Below, one piece after another: positions 1-61,404 of a stretch of 64,000 nucleotides of DNA. Where the stretch lies: NCBI RefSeq assembly GCF_011516935.1, contig NZ_WOTF01000007.1, positions 1 to 64,000 of the forward strand. Reading direction: 5' to 3'. Every line of letters begins with the position of its first letter. Position 1 is the stretch's first letter. Both the position numbers and the translations under genes were made by a program. Origin of the DNA: Acetobacter farinalis (lineage in GTDB: Bacteria; Pseudomonadota; Alphaproteobacteria; Acetobacterales; Acetobacteraceae). The notes under the pieces are model-generated. The model searched no databases, was not told where the DNA came from, and was given only the letters and a program-made list of their open reading frames with translations.

Positions 1-240
1 TCTTCAACATCAAAGAAACCAGTCTGCTTCATGATCCATGCCCCCAATCAACTCAAGGGAAATGGAATCACAGAGCAGCTCTCAAAACCAGGGGGTTTTT
101 CGAACCCTCCAGATGATGTAATCAGGAAAATTCAGGATTACAGGGAAAAAATAACCTCTTCGAACAGAAGCGAAGAAGAAATACAACGCCTGACAGATGA
201 GGCGGATCAGTCCATCAAGGAGATGGATAAGACGCTGTGA
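1..240 (+). CDS. small hypothetical protein, possibly 5'-truncated
   Basis: This reading frame is open from base 1, so the ATG at 31 (69 residues) may be internal to a longer gene that starts left of the window. The product is hydrophilic. Its C-terminal half is charged and helix-prone, rich in Glu, Lys and Arg (for example EEEIQRLTDEADQSIKEMDK), which could form a short coiled coil. There is no signal peptide, membrane segment or motif that I recognise. It lies in DNA of much lower GC content than the rest of the window, so it is probably part of the acquired segment. No function can be assigned. Confidence 0.35.
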   Translation, partial: SSTSKKPVCFMIHAPNQLKGNGITEQLSKPGGFSNPPDDVIRKIQDYREKITSSNRSEEEIQRLTDEADQSIKEMDKTL

Positions 241-830
241 CTTGGCCGATAGTTGTGGAGAGAGGGTAAGGAAGCCTTGTCTCACTGTTGGGGGAATCGG
301 AGACCGCATTCTTTAACGGGATTAACACGGTGGGTAACGCCTGCTTGTTCCGATTAAAAGGAATCCAGAGTTACAGATTTTGATTTTATGCCTGAGTCTG
401 GATAGTGGTTGCAAAATATATAATAAAATAAATTAAATATTATCATAATAAATAAATGATCAAGTGGAATAGTAATGAAAAAAATTGCATGGTTTTTATT
501 TTATAACGGATAAGAGTAATGGAAATATTCAAAAATGAAATATTTTAAGGTTATAAATTATATTTATCCCGTTAAGGGCATAGGAAGCAAAATCAAAAAA
601 CGAATTATGAAAAAATAACTCTATTTATTAAATAAATAATGAAATCTTTTTAAAATCAAAATGAATCAAAAACACGTATTTATTTTATTTGTTGTTAATT
701 ATCCATCAATTCATCCAGATTTTTATTGTTGCATTCAATAATATGTGTGGGGTTACGGTTGAGTTTTTCTTGATCCGTGTATTTTTTTAGAATAATAAAA
801 AAAATGTAATGTTTAGATGTTGGATCAGAG
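241..830. other. AT-rich intergenic region
   Basis: About 590 bases with very high A+T content and many short A and T runs. I see no open frame with a plausible ribosome binding site, no RNA gene and no clear terminator. The composition contrasts sharply with the GC-rich chromosome from about 2,560 onward. It would suit xenogeneic-silencer-bound foreign DNA and probably holds the promoter of the gene starting at 831, but no single -35/-10 pair stands out among the many candidates. Confidence 0.5.
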
Positions 831-2183
831 ATGGGCTTCACAGAAATTCTTTATAACGGGAATGACACTGTCGTTCATTTTCATGCTGGCGCTGAAGATT
901 TTGTAATAATAACGTTTATGGGGCTGTATCATGAAGAAGATGCAGAGGACACCTATTTTCTTAAACCTATTGCTGAAAAATTGAATTATACATGTATTGG
1001 AATAACAACTAAGAAGCAAAATTGGTATGTTTCTTCGGAGATGGAAGAAGTTATTTCTATATGTAGAAGTATGACAGAAGGAAAGAAAGTAATAACTTTT
1101 GGTCCGTCTATGGGGGGGTATGCCGCCATTAAATATTCAAATAGACTCAACGCTGATTATGTCTTGGCTTTGGCACCGAAGTTTAGTATTTATCATGAAG
1201 ACTGTAGTCTTCCAGAGCATTATACGCAATATATAAAAGAATATATGAAAGATATGGCCATAAAGCCAGAAGACACAAAAGGTGAAATTTATATTTGTTA
1301 TGATCCTAGCGAGGAGGTGGATAATTTTCAGGCCTACGAAACGTCTCGGCGCTGCAAGTCATCCGTTCTTATCCCTGTTTTTTACGCAGGGCATATCGTG
1401 ATTGATAGCTTGATTGGCGTACAGTCAATTAAGACTATAATGGAGTGTTTTGATTTCCAAGATAATAAAAAAACAACAGAAAAACTAACAAGAAGAATAA
1501 ATAATATAAGGAGAAAAAATAACAATAATATCATTAATAAAATTTACAGAGAAGGAAGGAGTAAGCCTAGTTTAATTTATAATATTCTGATGTCTGATAA
1601 ATTTTCAAATAAAAAAAGAAGTTCCGATGTGTATAATGATTTAGGACTTATGGGGGGAGTGTGTTTCGAATTGGCAAATAGAAATGAAATTATCAAAGCT
1701 CAGATATTAATTAATTCTATGAATTCATTCTTAATAAGAAATATTTTTTCATGTTCGGATTTTTTGTGGTGGAGTCATTTAGATAAAGGGGTTTTGATTA
1801 CCACGCACGGATCTCAGATTTATTATGATCCCAAGACGCGTAGTCTTTGTGCAGCTTCTCTTTTAAGGACCCCTGAGGGAATGATGCCTGTAGGTATTGA
1901 TTATGATGATGGAATGCCATGCCTTTGTGCGCAAAGTAATGGACGGATTTTTAGTCTCTATAAAGAGCCTGAATCTGCATTAATACATCTTTCGGTTGGT
2001 GAAAAAAAAGGTAATATATTTTTCTCGCCAGATAGAAATCCAAGCTTTTGTTTCTTGGAGGAGGGAGGGTATTTAAGGTGCTGGCCGGAAAATATAATAG
2101 ATTTTGAAGCCCAAGAAGTTAATGACTGGGAAAAGATAGCATTTATTCCACCTTTACGTGACAATAGAATTCGTGGAAGTTAA
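831..2183 (+). CDS. alpha/beta-hydrolase-like protein of unknown function
   Basis: A 450-residue protein. Residues about 20-210 look like an alpha/beta-hydrolase fold: a nucleophile elbow GPSMGGY with Ser93, an acidic candidate at Asp158 (CYDPSEEVD) and a candidate histidine at His188 (FYAGHIVID). A Lys/Asn-rich linker (about 210-270) leads to a C-terminal domain with Gly-turn/beta-strand patterns (YYDPKTRSLCAASL, GRIFSLYKEP, GYLRCW) that could be a beta-trefoil-like or other all-beta fold. There is no signal peptide. The gene is AT-rich and rich in AAA, AAT and ATA codons, unlike its neighbours, so transfer is likely. The start is the first ATG, with only a weak AGAG-type ribosome site. Hydrolases of this kind occur near surface-glycan genes, but that role is inference; the substrate is unknown. 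Confidence 0.6.
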   Translation: MGFTEILYNGNDTVVHFHAGAEDFVIITFMGLYHEEDAEDTYFLKPIAEKLNYTCIGITTKKQNWYVSSEMEEVISICRSMTEGKKVITFGPSMGGYAAIKYSNRLNADYVLALAPKFSIYHEDCSLPEHYTQYIKEYMKDMAIKPEDTKGEIYICYDPSEEVDNFQAYETSRRCKSSVLIPVFYAGHIVIDSLIGVQSIKTIMECFDFQDNKKTTEKLTRRINNIRRKNNNNIINKIYREGRSKPSLIYNILMSDKFSNKKRSSDVYNDLGLMGGVCFELANRNEIIKAQILINSMNSFLIRNIFSCSDFLWWSHLDKGVLITTHGSQIYYDPKTRSLCAASLLRTPEGMMPVGIDYDDGMPCLCAQSNGRIFSLYKEPESALIHLSVGEKKGNIFFSPDRNPSFCFLEEGGYLRCWPENIIDFEAQEVNDWEKIAFIPPLRDNRIRGS

Positions 2184-2606
2184 AGTTGTAGAAGTTATGA
2201 GTGATTTTTGGTGCAGTGATGGATGTTTTACGTCCTTTTGTGTGCCAGCGTTGTGAAAAATACGCAGGGTCGTTTTATTACAAGACTCACCGATAGGGCT
2301 TTCTGCATTTTTGATCATTGTATTGAAAAATTTAAGAAAATTTCTTTAAAAAGTATAATATTTTTAAATCCATACAGGAAAGGCCTCGTGTTGGAGTTGG
2401 GTGTTGGTGCCTCATGGGGAGTGCAGATTTCTGCTGTTACCGCTTTGATTTAAACGCATCTGTAGAGTTTATTTCAAAGAGGAATGATAATCGCGGAAAT
2501 TCTGGCAGTTTGCGGAAGTCTATCGATATCAATGAAGGTTTAATGAGGGGAAACCACTCATCCCCCGACTGTGGTGGACCTGTATGGGGCCTTCCACGGA
2601 TGGGGG
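2184..2606. other. intergenic region between the hydrolase-like gene and the tRNA
   Basis: About 420 bases in which composition changes from AT-rich (to about 2,470) to the GC-rich chromosomal average. A minimal frame at 2219-2296 reads like a zinc-ribbon tail (CQRC) but is too short to call and may be a gene remnant. No terminator with a U-run is evident after the hydrolase-like gene. This stretch lies directly at the 3' end of the tRNA-Arg gene, the place where one junction of an integrated element would be expected. Confidence 0.4.
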
Positions 2607-2936
2607 TGGTGTCCGCGACGGGATTCGAACCCATGGCCCCAGGATTCATCCCACTTCGGCTTTCACCGCCGCCTGGTTTCGTCCCCCTTCAGGGGCCGGG
2701 CGTTCGTGGTCTGGACTGTCCCTTTGCCGTAAGCCTTTTCAGGCTCGTAGGCACCGCCCGTCCAGTCTCTACACCTTCCGGCTCCAGCGTGGCGGAGCGC
2801 GGCTTGGCTCGGGATCGGCACGGCCAGAGATGGCCAGAGCGTTCCCCGAATTTGAGCGGATACACCATGGGGTTTCCCGTCATGGCGCCCAATTACCTTA
2901 GGAATCCTGTGCTCTATCCTGCTGAGCTACGCGGAC
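2607..2936 (-). tRNA. tRNA-Arg(CCU), interrupted by a group I intron
   Basis: Read on the minus strand. The 5' exon (2936-2900, 37 nt) has acceptor strand GTCCGCG, a D-stem GCTC/GAGC, anticodon stem CAGGA and loop start TTCCT with anticodon CCT at 2902-2900. The 3' exon (2646-2607, 40 nt) supplies AA, TCCTG, a GGGCC variable loop, the T-arm ATGGG-TTCGAAT-CCCGT, acceptor strand CGCGGAC, discriminator A and an encoded CCA (2609-2607). The exons join to a 77-nt tRNA with perfectly paired acceptor and anticodon stems. It reads the rare arginine codon AGG. The 253 bases between the exons are a group I intron placed right after the anticodon. The tRNA lies downstream of holA on the same strand with its own promoter. 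Confidence 0.93.
2647..2899 (-). ncRNA. group I self-splicing intron in the anticodon loop of tRNA-Arg(CCU)
   Basis: A 253-nt insertion after U36 of the tRNA, ending in G at 2647 as group I introns do. The 5' exon CCU can pair with GGG at 2890-2888 (C-G, C-G, U-G wobble at the splice site) to form P1. Core blocks match, from memory, the Azoarcus tRNA-Ile intron: CAAATTCGGGGAAC (2853-2840), GAGCCAAGC (2810-2802), AAGGTGTAGAGACT (about 2777-2764) followed by GACGG, and GACAGTCCAGA (2720-2710). The intron has no room for a homing endonuclease. An intron of similar size at the tRNA-Arg(CCU) gene is known from Agrobacterium (Reinhold-Hurek and Shub). The subgroup (IC3-like) is inferred; splicing itself is not shown. 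Confidence 0.92.
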
Positions 2937-2947
2937 ACACCCTGTTG

Positions 2948-2976
2948 TCTATACTGAAAGCATCCCGCCGGAGCAA
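2948..2976 (-). promoter_or_regulatory. sigma-70-type promoter of the tRNA-Arg gene
   Basis: On the minus strand, TTGCTC (2976-2971) and TATAGA (2953-2948) are separated by exactly 17 bases. Transcription would begin a few bases before the tRNA 5' end at 2936. The element fits in the short gap after the holA stop codon, so the tRNA can be transcribed independently of the leuS-lptE-holA genes. Confidence 0.6.
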
Positions 2977-2987
2977 GGGCGCAGGGT

Positions 2988-4001
2988 TCAGCGCCGAGCT
3001 GCCAGTGCCGCACGGGCGGCCAGCCCCGCCACGTAGCGTTTGCACAGCAGGGTATCCGGCGCGCCGGTCTGTTTGCAGGAGAGTTCCAGCGCCTGTGTTT
3101 CCTGCACGGCTTGGGTAAGGGCTGGAAGCGTCCAGAGTTCTGCTGCCCGGTTAAAACCGTTGGCGCGTTTGAAAAAAACAGGAGGCCGCAAGACCTTGAT
3201 GGCATCGCTCCGGCTGGCGCCATCCGCCATGGCCGCCCGCACCCGCCGCAGGCGGTGCAGGTGGGAGAGGAAGGCCCGGGCAATGGCAATCGGGCTGGTG
3301 CCTTCCGCCAGAGCGCGCTCAATGGCCAGATCGGCCTCCGCGCGGCGGCCTTCCATGGCGGCAAAGGCGGCGTCTTCCACAGAGACACTGCCCGCATCGC
3401 CAATGCAGGCATACAGATCTTCCAGGGAGAGTGTGCCTTTGTCCCCCGCATACAGGGCCAGCTTTTCCACTTCACTGCGGGCAGCGCCCCGGTCGGCCCC
3501 CAGTCGTCCTGTCAGCCAGTGCAGGGCATCCTGATCAATCCGCACGTTCCGGCTGGCCAGCATCTGGGTAATGGTGGCTTCAAGTGTGCGGCCTTCCTCC
3601 GGGTAGCACCCTACGCTGGCGCATTCGGGGTGCTTTTCCAGCAGGGCACGCAGTTTGGAGCGGGAGGGAAGGTCCGGGGCTTCCAGCACCACCAGGGTAT
3701 CCGTGTTCTGCTCCAGAACATGCGTCACAGCTTTCAGCAGGGTATCGCCCACATCCCGCACACGCACCACGCGGCGGCCCCCCATAAGGGAAAAAGCCGT
3801 GGCTTCTTCTTCCAGCCTGTCGTGCGTCTCCTTGTCCAGCACGGCCACCCGGAACGGGTCATCCTTGCTGCCGGCAACCATCTGCGTGGCGGAGAGCGCG
3901 CGTTCACGGATCAGCCCCGTATCCTCGCCGTGCAGCAGGATGACCCGCCATGAGCCGGGGTCCCGGGTAACGCGCGGCAGGGTGCGGGCATCAATTTTCA
4001 T
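2988..4001 (-). CDS. holA: DNA polymerase III subunit delta
   Basis: A 337-residue protein matching HolA in length and sequence style. HolA is the delta subunit of the clamp loader, which opens the beta sliding clamp for loading at primer-template junctions. The N-terminal region carries the degenerate AAA+ fold (RVILLHGEDTGLIRERA near residue 20), with the RAALA-type helical C-terminus ending in a basic patch. It follows lptE by 24 bases in the same direction and probably belongs to the DUF3576-leuS-lptE-holA transcription unit. This order is common in alphaproteobacteria. The ATG at 4001 is the natural start. Confidence 0.93.
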   Translation of the reverse strand: MKIDARTLPRVTRDPGSWRVILLHGEDTGLIRERALSATQMVAGSKDDPFRVAVLDKETHDRLEEEATAFSLMGGRRVVRVRDVGDTLLKAVTHVLEQNTDTLVVLEAPDLPSRSKLRALLEKHPECASVGCYPEEGRTLEATITQMLASRNVRIDQDALHWLTGRLGADRGAARSEVEKLALYAGDKGTLSLEDLYACIGDAGSVSVEDAAFAAMEGRRAEADLAIERALAEGTSPIAIARAFLSHLHRLRRVRAAMADGASRSDAIKVLRPPVFFKRANGFNRAAELWTLPALTQAVQETQALELSCKQTGAPDTLLCKRYVAGLAARAALAARR

Positions 4002-4025
4002 GGGGCTGGTCCGTGCCCTCAGCCG

Positions 4026-4724
4026 TTACAGGCCACCGGTAGAGCTTGGGGCGCCACGGCCGGTTGCCATATCCGGAATGGCATCCGCACCTTCCTGCTC
4101 CATCGGGGTATCTTTTTCAGAATTCGGAATGGCGTTGGGAATGGGGTAGAACGCCTTGGGGCCCTGATCACGGCGCTCGGCCGGAGTGGCCTGCGTGCGG
4201 AGCCATGTTGAAACCTGCTGTGTCACCTGGTCGGCCAGTGCCTTGGCAATGCGGCCATTTGCGGTTTCTGTATTCAGGGTCTGGGCGAAATACTGTTCGT
4301 AGGTGGCTGTGTAGCCATCCAGCGCGGAGGCATCCCCCTGTGCGAGCAGTTTGGGAGACTGCTCCACGGTATAGAGCATCCAGTGGGCATGGCCGTTCAT
4401 GCGGACACGGCCCGAGGTGTTATCCGCATGGATATCAATGGCTTCAGACCCGATGGAGGGCTGCACGACCAGCCGGTATCCTTGCGGGTCTTCCGGGCCA
4501 TCACCCGCCATATCCTGCTGCAGGGCAAGGCGCACCTGCTGCCCCACACGCTCGGGGATATTGGCAACGTAGATGCGCTTGAGTTCCGCCTGAATCTGCG
4601 GGTCATGCGCGCGTTCGCCATAGAGTGGCTGAAAACCGCACCCGCTCAGCGCAAGAGGAGCCCCCAGCAGCAGGACTGCCAGAGAGCCGTTCAGGAAAAT
4701 CTGCGGGGTGCGGGGTTTGAACAT
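4026..4724 (-). CDS. lptE: LPS-assembly lipoprotein LptE
   Basis: A 232-residue lipoprotein. The N-terminus has a hydrophobic signal and a lipobox LSGC with Cys29, followed directly by GFQPLYG, a signature stretch of LptE. LptE plugs the LptD barrel in the outer membrane and helps insert lipopolysaccharide into the outer leaflet. The start codon overlaps the leuS stop codon by one base (TGATG), so the two are translationally coupled. The C-terminal about 50 residues are Pro/Gly/Glu-rich and probably disordered. Placement between leuS and holA is the normal alphaproteobacterial arrangement and supports the call. Confidence 0.9.
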   Translation of the reverse strand: MFKPRTPQIFLNGSLAVLLLGAPLALSGCGFQPLYGERAHDPQIQAELKRIYVANIPERVGQQVRLALQQDMAGDGPEDPQGYRLVVQPSIGSEAIDIHADNTSGRVRMNGHAHWMLYTVEQSPKLLAQGDASALDGYTATYEQYFAQTLNTETANGRIAKALADQVTQQVSTWLRTQATPAERRDQGPKAFYPIPNAIPNSEKDTPMEQEGADAIPDMATGRGAPSSTGGL

Positions 4725-7369
4725 CAGCCTGCCGTTACAAAGTTGACGATACGGTTGGGCACATGAATGCGTTTGACAATTCTTTTGCCCTCCAGAAGCC
4801 GCGCCACGTTAGGCTCGGCTTCCGCGCGGGCAATCACGGTCGCGCTGTCTTCATCCGGTGCGGCGTCAATCTTGCCGCGCAGCTTGCCCATGATCTGCAC
4901 GGCAAGTGTGACCTGCGTGGCGGCCAGCAGGCTCGGGTCCGCATCAGGCCAGGGCAGTTGTACCACCATAGGGCCTGCCGGTTCCATCTGGGCGAACATT
5001 TCCTCCGCCAGATGCGGCATCATCGGGGCGCACAACTGGCAGAGTGTGCGGGCGGCCTCGCGTCGGGCGAACGCCATGCCTGCGGCATCGGGTGTTTTTT
5101 CGGCGTCTGCCAGAGCGGAGGTCAGCTCATGGATACGGGCCACGGCCACGTTGATGGTGAAGGTTTCCAGCGCTTCCGTTACGGCGGCAACGGTGCGGTG
5201 GGTGGCGCGGCGCAGGGCATCTGCTTCCGGTGCGATCTCTGCCGGGCAGGTATCCTGCGCGGGCACATCCTGCGCCACGCTGCGCACAAGGCGGAACAGG
5301 CGCTGGGCAAAGCGGGCCGCGCCGGACACCCCGGCTTCCGTCCACTCCATGTCGCGCTCCGGCGGGCTGTCGGAGAGTACGAACCAGCGGGCGGTATCCG
5401 CGCCAAAGCGTTCGATAATGGCCACAGGGGCCACCGTGTTCCGCTTGGATTTGGACATTTTTTCCACACGGCCAACCGTCACGGCTTCTCCCGTGGCGCG
5501 CGCCACGACACCCTCCGGGCGGCTCTCCACTTCTTCGGGATACAGCCAGTTTCCGGCAGAGTCCTTGTAGCTTTCGTGGCTGACCATGCCCTGTGTGAAC
5601 AGGCCGGCAAACGGCTCGCTCAGGTCCAGATGCCCGGTCTTGCGCATGGCGCGGGTAAAGAAGCGCGCATAGAGCAGATGCAGGATGGCGTGTTCAATCC
5701 CGCCAATATACTGGTCTACCGCCAGCCAGCCATCCGCGGCGCTGCGCACTGTCGGGGTGTCCGCATGCGGCGCGGTGAAGCGGGCAAAATACCATGAGCT
5801 GTCAACAAACGTATCGAACGTGTCCGTCTCACGCACAGCCGGTTTGCCGCAGCAGGGGCAGTCCACATGTTTCCATGTGGGGTGATGATCCAGCGGGTTT
5901 CCGGGTTTGTCGAACGTGACATCTTCCGGCAGCTTGACCGGAAGCTGGGCGTCCGGCACCGGAACGGCCCCGCAGCTTTCGCAATGGATGACCGGAATGG
6001 GGCAACCCCAGTAGCGCTGGCGGGACACACCCCAGTCCCGCAGGCGCCAGTTGACCACACCTTTGCCAACCCCCAGTTCTTCCAGCCGGGTGATAGCCTC
6101 CCTGCGGGCGTCTTCCGTGGAAAGACCATCCAGAAAGCCCGAGTTGATCAGGGTGCCATCGCCGGTGAAGGCGTTTTTGGTAATGACGAATTCGGCCTCG
6201 GTCTTGCCATGCGGCAGGACAACCGGCGTGACGGGCAGAGTGTATTTGTGCGCGAAGTCCAGATCGCGCTGGTCTCCGGAAGGGCAGCCAAACAGCGCAC
6301 CCGTTCCGTAATCCATCAGCACGAAATTGGCGATCCAGATTGGAAAGCTCTTGTCCATGAAGGGATGATTGACGCGCAGACCTGTATCGAAGCCGCGCTT
6401 TTCAGCCGTTTCCACTGCTTCCACCGAGGTGCCGAGGCGGCGGCATTCCGCAATGAACTCAGCCGCTTCCGGATTGCTCTGTGCAACCCACGCTGCCAGC
6501 GGATGGTCAGGCGCAATGGCCAGAAAGGACATGCCGAAGAGCGTATCCGGGCGGGTGGTGAAAACTTCCACCGCGTTCAGGTTGCTCTCCAGCCCCTGCG
6601 GCGGCTGATGCAGGGAGAAGGTGATATGCGCCCCTTCTGAACGGCCAATCCAGCGTTCCTGCATGGTGCGCACGCGGTCCGGCCAGCGGTCCAGCGTTTT
6701 CAGGCCTTCCAGAAGATCCTCAGCGAAATCGGTGATCTTGAGGAACCACTGGGAGAGCTTCTTTTTTTCGATCAGCGCGCCGGAGCGCCAGCCGCGCCCG
6801 TCCACCACCTGTTCGTTCGCCAGCACGGTCTGGTCTACCGGGTCCCAGTTCACCCAGCTTTCCCGGCGCTCGACAAGGCCTGCCTGAAGGAAGTCCAGAA
6901 ACAGTTTTTGCTGCTTGCCATAATATTCAGGCAGGCAGGTGGCGATTTCGCGGTCCCAGTTCAGGGAGAAGCCAAGGCGCTGGAGGGTGGCGCGCATGGC
7001 GGCAATGTTTTTGAGTGTCCAGTCCTGCGGGTGGACGCCGCGTTCACGCGCCGCGTTTTCCGCCGGCAGGCCAAACGCATCCCACCCCATGGGGTGCAGC
7101 ACGGCATAGCCACGGGCGCGCTTGTACCGCGCCACCACGTCACCCAGCGCATAGTTCCGGACATGGCCCATATGGAGCTGGCCGGAGGGGTAGGGAAACA
7201 TTTCCAGCACATAGTATTTGGGCTGATCGGCCGGGGGGACATCCGGCACGGTGAAGACACCGGCATCATCCCACGCTTTCTGCCACCGGGGCTCAACGGT
7301 CTGAAAATCGAAGGCAACCCCTGTGGAGGAGGGCGCCGAGGTGCTGGGCGTGCTGGCAGGCTGTGTCAT
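4724..7369 (-). CDS. leuS: leucyl-tRNA synthetase
   Basis: An 881-residue class I aminoacyl-tRNA synthetase that charges tRNA-Leu. The HIGH motif is HMGH at residues 66-69 within [18 protein letters not shown], and the KMSKS loop appears intact as KMSKSKRNT near residue 640. The CP1 editing domain ([15 protein letters not shown] region) and the C-terminal anticodon-binding and LRGKI domains are all present, so the protein is full length. An Ala/Ser/Thr/Pro-rich tail of about 15 residues precedes the conserved part. It is the central gene of a minus-strand group, preceded by the DUF3576 lipoprotein gene and coupled to lptE. Confidence 0.97.
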
Positions 7370-7444
7370 GGAACTCGCGCGGGTGATTTTGAAGGCGGGG
7401 AAAACCGGCCCTCAGCGGGCCGGAACGGCGGGGTAGCCGGGAGA

Positions 7445-7987
7445 TCAGTCGTCCCGGTTGCCGTTATCTGCGCGCAGCTTGCGTGCGCGGGAGAGAATGC
7501 GGGCCGCAATGTCAGAGGCCGTGTTGGCGGCGGGCGGTGTATCCACCCATTCGCCGCCCTGCTGGACCTGCCGGAAAACCGTCAGCCTCAGGGCATCGGA
7601 GCGCATGCGGCGGTCAAGAATGAACGCCGTTATCTTGAAGCGCTCCCCATGGGCCGCGGGCGGGGTGTACCAGTCTGTCAGGATAATGCCACCCTCCGCA
7701 TCCGCCGAGGAAACCGGCATGAAGGAGAGCGTATCCAGCGTTGCGCGCCACAGATAGGCGTTTACGCCGCCTTTCAGCACGTCCTCCCCACCCGATGCGC
7801 CACGGTCTTCATGCAGAAGGTGGTTGCGCGGGGAGGTCAGGCCATTGCTGGTGCGGTGGCCGCCGCCGAAGCAGGCGGTGAGCAGCAGCAGGCTGGAAAG
7901 GGCGGCACCAGACAGCCAGAAAGAAGACCGGGAGCCGCGGGAGGCAGAACCGGAAGCGGGCGGGCAGGGCATGAGACGACGTGGCAT
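7445..7987 (-). CDS. DUF3576 domain lipoprotein
   Basis: A 180-residue protein with an N-terminal signal and lipobox (LLTAC, Cys39), followed by a domain with VNAYLWRATLDTLSFMP and GGIILTDWY, typical of the DUF3576 family. This family is found upstream of leuS in many alphaproteobacteria; its function is unknown. The protein should be lipid-anchored in the envelope. The basic stretch before the hydrophobic core is longer than usual, so the true start may be an internal Met. The gene lies 75 bases upstream of leuS in the same direction and probably heads that operon. Confidence 0.85.
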   Translation of the reverse strand: MPRRLMPCPPASGSASRGSRSSFWLSGAALSSLLLLTACFGGGHRTSNGLTSPRNHLLHEDRGASGGEDVLKGGVNAYLWRATLDTLSFMPVSSADAEGGIILTDWYTPPAAHGERFKITAFILDRRMRSDALRLTVFRQVQQGGEWVDTPPAANTASDIAARILSRARKLRADNGNRDD

Positions 7988-8050
7988 AATGTCGATACGG
8001 CTCCTTCGGCGGCGGGGCGCCGATGTTCCCCGGCCTGCCGCTGCGCAGGA

Positions 8051-60753: not shown

Positions 60754-60969
60754 GACAGCTCTCCTCGCTCACGCTGGTCCTTTCGGGCCAGCGATTTGAA
60801 TATCACTCTGCCGTCAGCCATGCGTGAAAGAGGGGATAAGTGCAAGCCGCCAAGCCATGATTCTGTAGCGCAGTGGGTTCCTCACAGCTGCGTATGCCGG
60901 CTTTCAAAAGTGCTTGAGCATTGGCAGGCTGCGGGGTTCATGCCCCGGCTGCGGTCCTGAAATTTTAAC

Positions 60970-61280
60970 GGGATTTTTCTGGCGGACTGTGAGGGGGCTT
61001 CTGTTGCCCGGTGCCCCCCCGAACCGCGCTTATCGCTTATGCAGCGACAGCGAGCACCTCAGTGTTATCGTTGGCACTTGTATGTTTAGCCCGATAACGG
61101 CGGTACAATGCCGGGCAAAAGGAAGGTCTTTACCACGCGTGTCGAGCCTGTTTCGTCCCCATCCGTCCGGCCGTGAGGCTGGATTGAAACTGGTGGAGAC
61201 GCCGGGTACTGCCCCCGGGTCCACAACGATTATTCCACGTTCCGTTTATCACCATAGCCAAGGGGCAAGCCCCTCCTGCA
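60970..61280 (-). ncRNA. ssrA: two-piece (circularly permuted) tmRNA
   Basis: On the minus strand the acceptor piece comes first, ending in GGGGGCAGTACCCGG, CGTCTCC, A, CCA with CCA at 61193-61191. A 30-base intervening segment (61190-61161) is expected to be removed. The coding piece starts GGGGACGAAACAGGCTCGAC at 61160; GGGGACG pairs with CGTCTCC (one G-U) to rebuild the acceptor stem. The tag frame, 61075-61037, encodes ANDNTEVLAVAA followed by TAA. Near the end GGGGGG...CCCCC forms a hairpin. This permuted layout is typical of alphaproteobacteria. It rescues stalled ribosomes and marks their products for ClpXP. Outer boundaries are approximate. Confidence 0.93.
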
Positions 61281-61286
61281 CCAATG

Positions 61287-61315
61287 AACATAAGGAGCAC
61301 AGCGGTGGATTGCAA
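61287..61315 (-). promoter_or_regulatory. sigma-70-type promoter of ssrA
   Basis: TTGCAA (61315-61310) and TATGTT (61292-61287) are separated by exactly 17 bases on the minus strand. The start of transcription would fall near 61280, just before the acceptor piece. Confidence 0.6.
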
Positions 61316-61404
61316 GATCCTGTTTCACGCGGCGGCCCAACTTGAATGCGTGCTGGACTGTCTGTAACACAGAAGCCGAGCTCATTTTCAGTCCGGGGAA
61401 CAGC

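What the first reader, a model, noticed from the sequence alone, without database searches (positions are those of the whole stretch)
2607..2936. Group I intron inside the anticodon loop of tRNA-Arg(CCU)
The two tRNA halves pair perfectly once 253 bases are removed, the cut follows U36, the intron ends in G, and its core blocks match the Azoarcus tRNA-Ile intron as I remember it. Introns at this site are known from Agrobacterium, so the class is not new, but presence in this lineage and adjacency to an apparently acquired region are notable. The tRNA depends on splicing, which makes AGG decoding dependent on a ribozyme.
Basis: partly seen in the sequence, partly recalled or inferred. Interest (0 to 1): 0.8.

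Follow-up and report, generated by a model that had tools for sequence, protein, structure and literature searches.

The report
Self-splicing intron splits an arginine tRNA
An Acetobacter bacterium carries a 253-letter self-splicing RNA inside one of its arginine tRNA genes; it is real and well preserved, but it belongs to an intron family already described in this group of bacteria, so by itself it is ordinary.

Summary
Window 2936-2607, minus strand, is tRNA-Arg(CCU) split after U36 by a 253-nt intron ending in G. A covariance model built only from introns outside Acetobacteraceae finds it at 140.9 bits, E 2.5e-34; the next match in the window has 5 bits. Rfam RF00028 gives 25.5 bits, E 1.9e-4, below its cut-off of 50. 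Over 48 genus loci (own included), 27 of 59 proposed pairs show changes on both sides. The host is an Acetobacter; 48 of 49 genus genomes have the split gene with the same junction. The acquired neighbour is real: 2.4 kb of 35% GC. More interesting, found in passing: related introns sit in Lys, Thr, Leu(UAA) and Arg(UCU) tRNAs of relatives, and in six Acetobacter genomes no intact tRNA-Lys(UUU) was found.

The parts
2900..2936 (-). 5' exon of tRNA-Arg(CCU), ending in C34 C35 U36
   Evidence: ARAGORN with introns; identical last 11 bases in 48 of 48 genus loci
2647..2899 (-). 253-nt group I intron, first base A (2899), last base G (2647)
2607..2646 (-). 3' exon of tRNA-Arg(CCU) including encoded CCA
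2888..2902 (-). P1: exon CCU (2902-2900) with guide GGG (2890-2888), U-G pair at the splice site, extended by AA/UU
   Evidence: the three exon pairs are invariant in 46 distinct sequences; the innermost extension pair is unpaired in 21 of 46
2865..2885 (-). P2 with a conserved GGAAAC loop
   Evidence: 5 of 5 pairs with compensatory changes, 100% paired
2754..2859 (-). P3 (2859-2854 with 2759-2754), enclosing P4, P5, P6
   Evidence: 2 of 6 P3 pairs with compensatory changes in A1, 5 of 6 in A2 with Lys and Thr introns
2713..2769 (-). P7 (2769, 2767-2763 with 2718-2713) with a bulged A at 2768, pseudoknotted with P3
   Evidence: invariant in A1; 1 of 6 pairs compensatory in A2
2726..2752 (-). 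P8
   Evidence: 6 of 7 pairs with compensatory changes in A1
2651..2709 (-). P9 region
   Evidence: outer P9 invariant, two inner helices with compensatory changes at each of 7 pairs
241..2606 (.). low-GC insert (2,366 bases, 34.5% GC, against 63.4% for 2937-8000) between the tRNA 3' end and the old neighbour gene; holds one 450-aa ORF (831-2183) with no Pfam match
   Evidence: in 5 of 9 relatives compared the same neighbour gene ends 29-84 nt from the tRNA
1..240 (+). end of the old neighbour gene; a match to another part of it lies near the start of contig C2, beside what reads like the end of a transposase
   Evidence: the transposase was judged by eye

Best explanation
It is a group I (probably IC3) self-splicing intron of the known alphaproteobacterial tRNA-Arg(CCU) family. 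The transcript folds the intron core; the guide GGG pairs with CCU of the anticodon so that U36 sits in a U-G pair; a bound guanosine cuts after U36; the freed exon end then attacks after the last intron G, joining U36 to A37 and giving a normal tRNA. Shown here: gene layout, conserved junction, conserved and covarying core. Shown elsewhere for a family member (Bartonella bacilliformis): self-splicing in vitro and splicing in vivo. Inferred for this strain: that it splices, and that the spliced tRNA is charged and used.
For: Split tRNA folds. RF00028 E 1.9e-4. Independent model R2, 22 introns from outside Acetobacteraceae, 140.9 bits, E 2.5e-34. 48 loci, one junction, final G in each. 96.7% of cells paired and 27 of 59 pairs with changes on both sides, 0 of 500 shuffles as high for either; slid controls 27-44% paired. 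Family member shown to splice (PMC7717549, passages).
Against: No RNA data for this strain. Below the Rfam gathering score. Free energy of the unspliced RNA is ordinary. No promoter-like or terminator-like site by simple consensus in 2400-3100. Weak pairs: one in P1 and one in P5 fail in 21 and 22 of 46 sequences. Splicing is inferred by homology: the intron is 91.6% identical to the nearest named Acetobacter and 70.0% to the nearest Bartonella intron in hand.
Confidence: 0.96

Rival explanations
1. The gene is a silent, unspliced relic; AGG is read by tRNA-Arg(UCU).
For: Intact tRNA-Arg(UCU) present. One reduced relative (G038, 1.5 Mb) shows no match to the split gene and no CCU anticodon among 30 of its 39 tRNA matches read, while it has UCU.
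Against: Both exons and the core stay intact across 48 genus genomes with compensatory changes; a relic would decay.
Confidence: 0.03
2. The intron is kept because it breaks the tRNA as an attachment site for integrating elements, as proposed for some archaeal tRNA introns (PMC4090602, passage).
For: Foreign DNA stops at the tRNA 3' end here, so the site matters to incoming DNA.
Against: The 3' end still seems to serve as such a site in a relative with the split gene: in G026 a 31-base copy of it (L335 9857-9887) lies beside a phage-type integrase gene (PF00589, E 2e-23). Short 3'-end copies also lie elsewhere in G003, G024, G025 and G031, with no integrase looked for there by profile except two ORFs of L334 and L338 regions, which gave none. 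No att repeat longer than 9 nt borders the window's insert.
Confidence: 0.03
3. An intron removed by proteins (archaeal bulge-helix-bulge type).
For: Position in the anticodon loop.
Against: Length, group I core, U before the cut and G at the end, conserved guide.
Confidence: 0.01

Closest known systems
BbgpI, group I intron in tRNA-Arg(CCU) of Bartonella bacilliformis (PMC7717549, passages)
   Same: Same host tRNA, CCT at the 5' junction, group I helices; shown to self-splice in vitro and to be spliced in vivo
   Different: Other order; the best Bartonella intron in hand is 70.0% identical over 227 aligned bases; B. bacilliformis itself was not among the loci I held
Split tRNA (Arg) of acetic acid bacteria, footnote of Table 1 in the Asaia bogorensis genome paper (PMC4596401, passages)
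   Same: Same kind of split gene; the footnote marks Acetobacter pasteurianus among others
   Different: The passages seen state only homology to a group I intron; no structure, anticodon or splicing shown there
tRNA-Arg(CCU) introns of Agrobacterium and other alpha-purple bacteria (Reinhold-Hurek and Shub 1992; Paquin and others 1999; titles in reference lists only; the 1999 paper is not held)
   Same: Same site and family, as stated in PMC7717549
   Different: Their sequences were not compared here
Azoarcus tRNA-Ile IC3 intron (recalled)
   Same: Core motifs as recalled
   Different: Other host tRNA; not compared by any search

Membership tests
Alphaproteobacterial tRNA-Arg(CCU) group I intron family | Sits in tRNA-Arg(CCU) directly after U36 | tested here: met
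Alphaproteobacterial tRNA-Arg(CCU) group I intron family | Core alike to members from other orders | tested here: met
   R2 built from 22 introns of loci titled Phyllobacterium, Mesorhizobium, Bartonella, Aureimonas, Rhodobacter, Azospirillum, Magnetospirillum and others: 140.9 bits
Group I intron | P3-P7 pseudoknot core with P4, P6, P8, bulged base in P7 | tested here: met
   P4, P6, P7 and outer P9 never vary in A1, so covariation there neither supports nor contradicts them; in A2 one pair each of P4, P6 and P7 is compensatory
Group I intron | U-G pair at the 5' splice site and G as last intron base | tested here: met
   46 of 46 distinct sequences for U-G, 48 of 48 for final G
Group I intron | Reaches the Rfam RF00028 gathering score | tested here: not met
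   25.5 bits against 50; this is a curator's filter, not a structural feature, and the clade model scores far higher
Subgroup IC3 | IC3 peripheral layout (short P5, no P5a-d domain) | tested here: inconclusive
   P5 is short; absence of P5(a-d) in IC3 is stated in PMC11835236 (passage); no subgroup classifier was run
Group I intron | Splices without protein | not testable with these tools
   Shown for a family member in PMC7717549

The most novel reading that the evidence does not exclude
The window's intron is one branch of a single intron lineage that has moved among anticodon loops of at least seven tRNA types in alphaproteobacteria, landing after a U each time, and in some Acetobacter has entered the only tRNA-Lys(UUU) gene, so that reading AAA, unlike AGG, would depend wholly on a ribozyme.
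Probability: 0.5. Interest if true: 0.5.

Novelty: already known. Interest (0 to 1): 0.25.

Why it matters
For annotation: default ARAGORN and Rfam at its curated score miss this gene, so genomes of this genus can look as if they lacked tRNA-Arg(CCU). For evolution: the intron is nearly fixed in Acetobacter while many other genera of the family have an intact copy, and related introns sit in other tRNAs; the set would allow a test of how group I introns move between tRNA genes and whether a cell can depend on one for an otherwise unreadable codon.

Tried and rejected
ARAGORN's label SeC(UCA) for the second introns in L076-L079 and L085 was rejected: with the cut after U35 the same exons make a perfect tRNA-Lys(UUU). 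The idea that the partial copy in G003 marks an island end was dropped: it shares the downstream flank with the main copy and looks like a duplicated or rearranged locus.

A test of whether each intron's guide fits its own host better than other hosts did not discriminate: with three-base guides most introns also fit several foreign exons. In one search splits were required to have U before and G at the end, and the scoring rewards both, so those two features are not independent evidence there. The P10 count is not evidence either, because the pattern fixed those bases. The free-energy test was uninformative.

Full report
What is there. Window 2607-2936 read on the minus strand gives two tRNA halves that ARAGORN, told to allow introns, joins into tRNA-Arg(cct), 77 bases, intron 253 bases. 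Without that option it finds only the tmRNA in this window. Exon 1 ends ...GGATTCCT, the intron starts AAGG and ends GGATG, exon 2 starts AATCC. The window is the first 64 kb of an 83-kb contig of a 2.94-Mb genome in 74 contigs.

Is it a group I intron. RF00028 matches 2912-2744 with 25.5 bits, E 1.9e-4 for 551 bases against all 4227 families, below the gathering score of 50; at gathering threshold the window gives only two tmRNA families, and a whole-genome RF00028 search gives none. I aligned the intron with its counterparts in 48 genus loci, own included, 46 distinct (A1), and wrote down the helices P1 to P9 by hand. Of 59 pairs, 27 show a change on both sides in at least one sequence, 96.7% of cells are standard pairs, and 0 of 500 shuffles reach either figure; for further pair types 1 of 500 does. 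Sliding the partners by 1-3 columns drops pairing to 27-44%. The structure was fitted to these sequences, which favours it on the paired percentage. P4, P6, P7 and outer P9 never vary in A1 and so say nothing by covariation. Weak spots: one P1 extension pair is unpaired in 21 of 46 sequences, one P5 pair in 22 of 46. Adding Lys and Thr introns (A2, 23 sequences) gives compensatory changes in 5 of 6 P3 pairs and in one pair each of P4, P6 and P7.

Independent test. Model R1 contains the window's own intron, so its 169.5 bits are partly circular. I therefore built R2 from 22 introns whose record titles lie outside Acetobacteraceae (Rhizobiales, Rhodobacterales, Azospirillum, Magnetospirillum; orders by general knowledge). 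I picked 23 loci, left one long one out, and used the structure predicted by the program. R2 finds the window intron at 140.9 bits, E 2.5e-34; the second best place in the window has 5 bits. R1 finds no second intron in the genome: next match 12.4 bits, E 2.06.

Host and distribution. 48 of 49 genus genomes, own included, have the full-length match; in these 48 ARAGORN gives Arg(cct) with an intron of 226-265 nt at the same junction. The exception, G038, is a 1.5-Mb genome of 96% completeness; among 30 of its 39 tRNA matches read there are Arg acg, ccg and tct but no cct. In the family, 115 of 249 genomes have an R1 match, six of them Acetobacter, in 53 of 102 genera; in the class 50 of 385, five of them from the own family.

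Split against intact. From the table (family searched with joined exons) I read that 17 of the 115 intron-positive genomes hold a full-length or nearly full-length intact tRNA-Arg(CCU). For 14 of these 17 I looked at where the intron sits: none is in Arg(CCU); eleven are in a clearly assigned other tRNA, G160 (Leu, reading uncertain) and G189 (Asn, 36 bits) are less sure, and G276 has a class II tRNA-like gene that I could not assign. G180, G228 and G265 were not looked at. Only three candidates per genome were scored.

Inheritance. A tree of 131 introns (112 of 119 named stretches that could be parsed, the window, 18 introns from other tRNAs) needs 20 changes of group label, against 58 or more in 200 shuffles and a possible minimum of 9. 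In the leaf order, introns mostly lie together by genus, which fits vertical descent at short range, but Acetobacter appears in three places; support values were not examined, so old transfer is not excluded.

Dependence. The 43 tRNAs above the cut-off in the window's genome include Arg UCU and ACG, no intact CCU and no CCG. UCU should also read AGG by wobble (general knowledge), so the ribozyme is needed for the dedicated CCU tRNA, not necessarily for reading AGG. In 36 long ORFs of the window, a crude set, AGG occurs 80 times and AGA 72 times in 16,842 codons. CGG occurs 381 times, so the missing CCG tRNA is probably an assembly gap; G002 and G038 have it.

Neighbourhood. GC is 34.5% in 241-2606 and 63.4% in 2937-8000 (profile). 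In 5 of 9 relatives compared, the gene next to the tRNA on this side ends 29-84 nt away; the other four (L328-L331) have other neighbours. Here that gene's end lies at window 1-240 and 2,366 bases of low-GC DNA with one 450-aa ORF without Pfam match lie between. A match to another part of the neighbour gene lies near the start of another contig beside what reads like a transposase end. No copy of the tRNA end longer than 9 nt borders the insert. So the acquired region is real and small, and was not shown to be an integrase island. In a relative, G026, a 31-base copy of the tRNA 3' end lies beside a phage-type integrase gene, so this 3' end is probably used as an attachment site in the genus although the gene is split.

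Other hosts of the lineage. With a script that tests splits of a tRNA around an R1 match, related introns were placed in Leu(UAA) after U34, Lys(UUU) and Lys(CUU) after U35, Thr(GGU) after U36, Thr(UGU) after U34 and Arg(UCU) after U34; 42 of these were carried into (25, 6, 3, 5, 1, 2). Four of the 42 (L138, L149, L140, L199) had been given another anticodon by the free scoring and were reassigned by me after their siblings. Not carried into: L141, L151, L165 (class II tRNA-like, no clean loop), L143 and L196 (no split found), L155 (36 bits), L168, L192 and L201 (Leu, reading uncertain), L184 (like L183), and L162, which reads as Arg(CCU). R2 scores seven of these other-host introns at 91-129 bits. 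For six Acetobacter genomes with the Lys(UUU) intron (five seen in sequence, G032 by its two half matches) no intact tRNA-Lys(UUU) was found, while G000 and G002 have one; G035 is only 68% and G027 86% complete.

Literature. Asaia paper: a footnote says one tRNA (Arg) is split by a sequence homologous to a group I intron in several acetic acid bacteria (passages). [quoted passage not shown] tRNAscan-SE 2.0 paper: group I introns hide fMet and Ile2 genes (passages). Other papers seen in passages. Introns in Lys or Thr tRNAs of alphaproteobacteria did not show in the listings (one search found nothing); these cover open-licence papers only, and the listings were cut (21 of 22, 20 of 31, 15 of 107). 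The title of Paquin and others 1999 (reference list; paper not held) already speaks of transposition of this intron.

Verdict. Real, functional by the comparative evidence, and already known as a family in this genus.

Noticed in passing
L076, L077, L078, L079, L085 (and G032:C111): Six Acetobacter genomes carry a related group I intron in tRNA-Lys(UUU), after U35, and no intact tRNA-Lys(UUU) was found in them, which would make AAA reading depend on a ribozyme.
   Followed up: partly
   Followed up: partly
L136-L139, L181-L191 and others: Related introns in tRNA-Leu(UAA) after U34 recur in the class; by recall this is the position of the cyanobacterial and plastid tRNA-Leu intron.
   Followed up: partly
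L141, L151, L165: Clear intron cores (123.0 and 128.2 bits with R2 for L141 and L165) inside a class II tRNA-like gene whose joined anticodon loop does not come out as a normal 7-base loop.
   Followed up: no
   Followed up: no
L335 9857-11343: G026: a 31-base copy of the tRNA-Arg(CCU) 3' end beside a phage-type integrase gene (PF00589).
   Followed up: partly
L080 1449-1599: G003 has a second, 5'-truncated copy of the split gene holding the 3' part of the intron, exon 2 and the shared downstream flank.
   Followed up: partly
window 831-2183: 450-aa ORF in low-GC DNA, begins like an alpha/beta hydrolase by eye, no Pfam match.
   Followed up: partly
G000 tRNA set: No tRNA-Arg(CCG) in the assembly although CGG is common; probably a gap.
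   Followed up: partly
window 60946-61319: Permuted two-piece tmRNA with tag ANDNTEVLAVAA.
   Followed up: no
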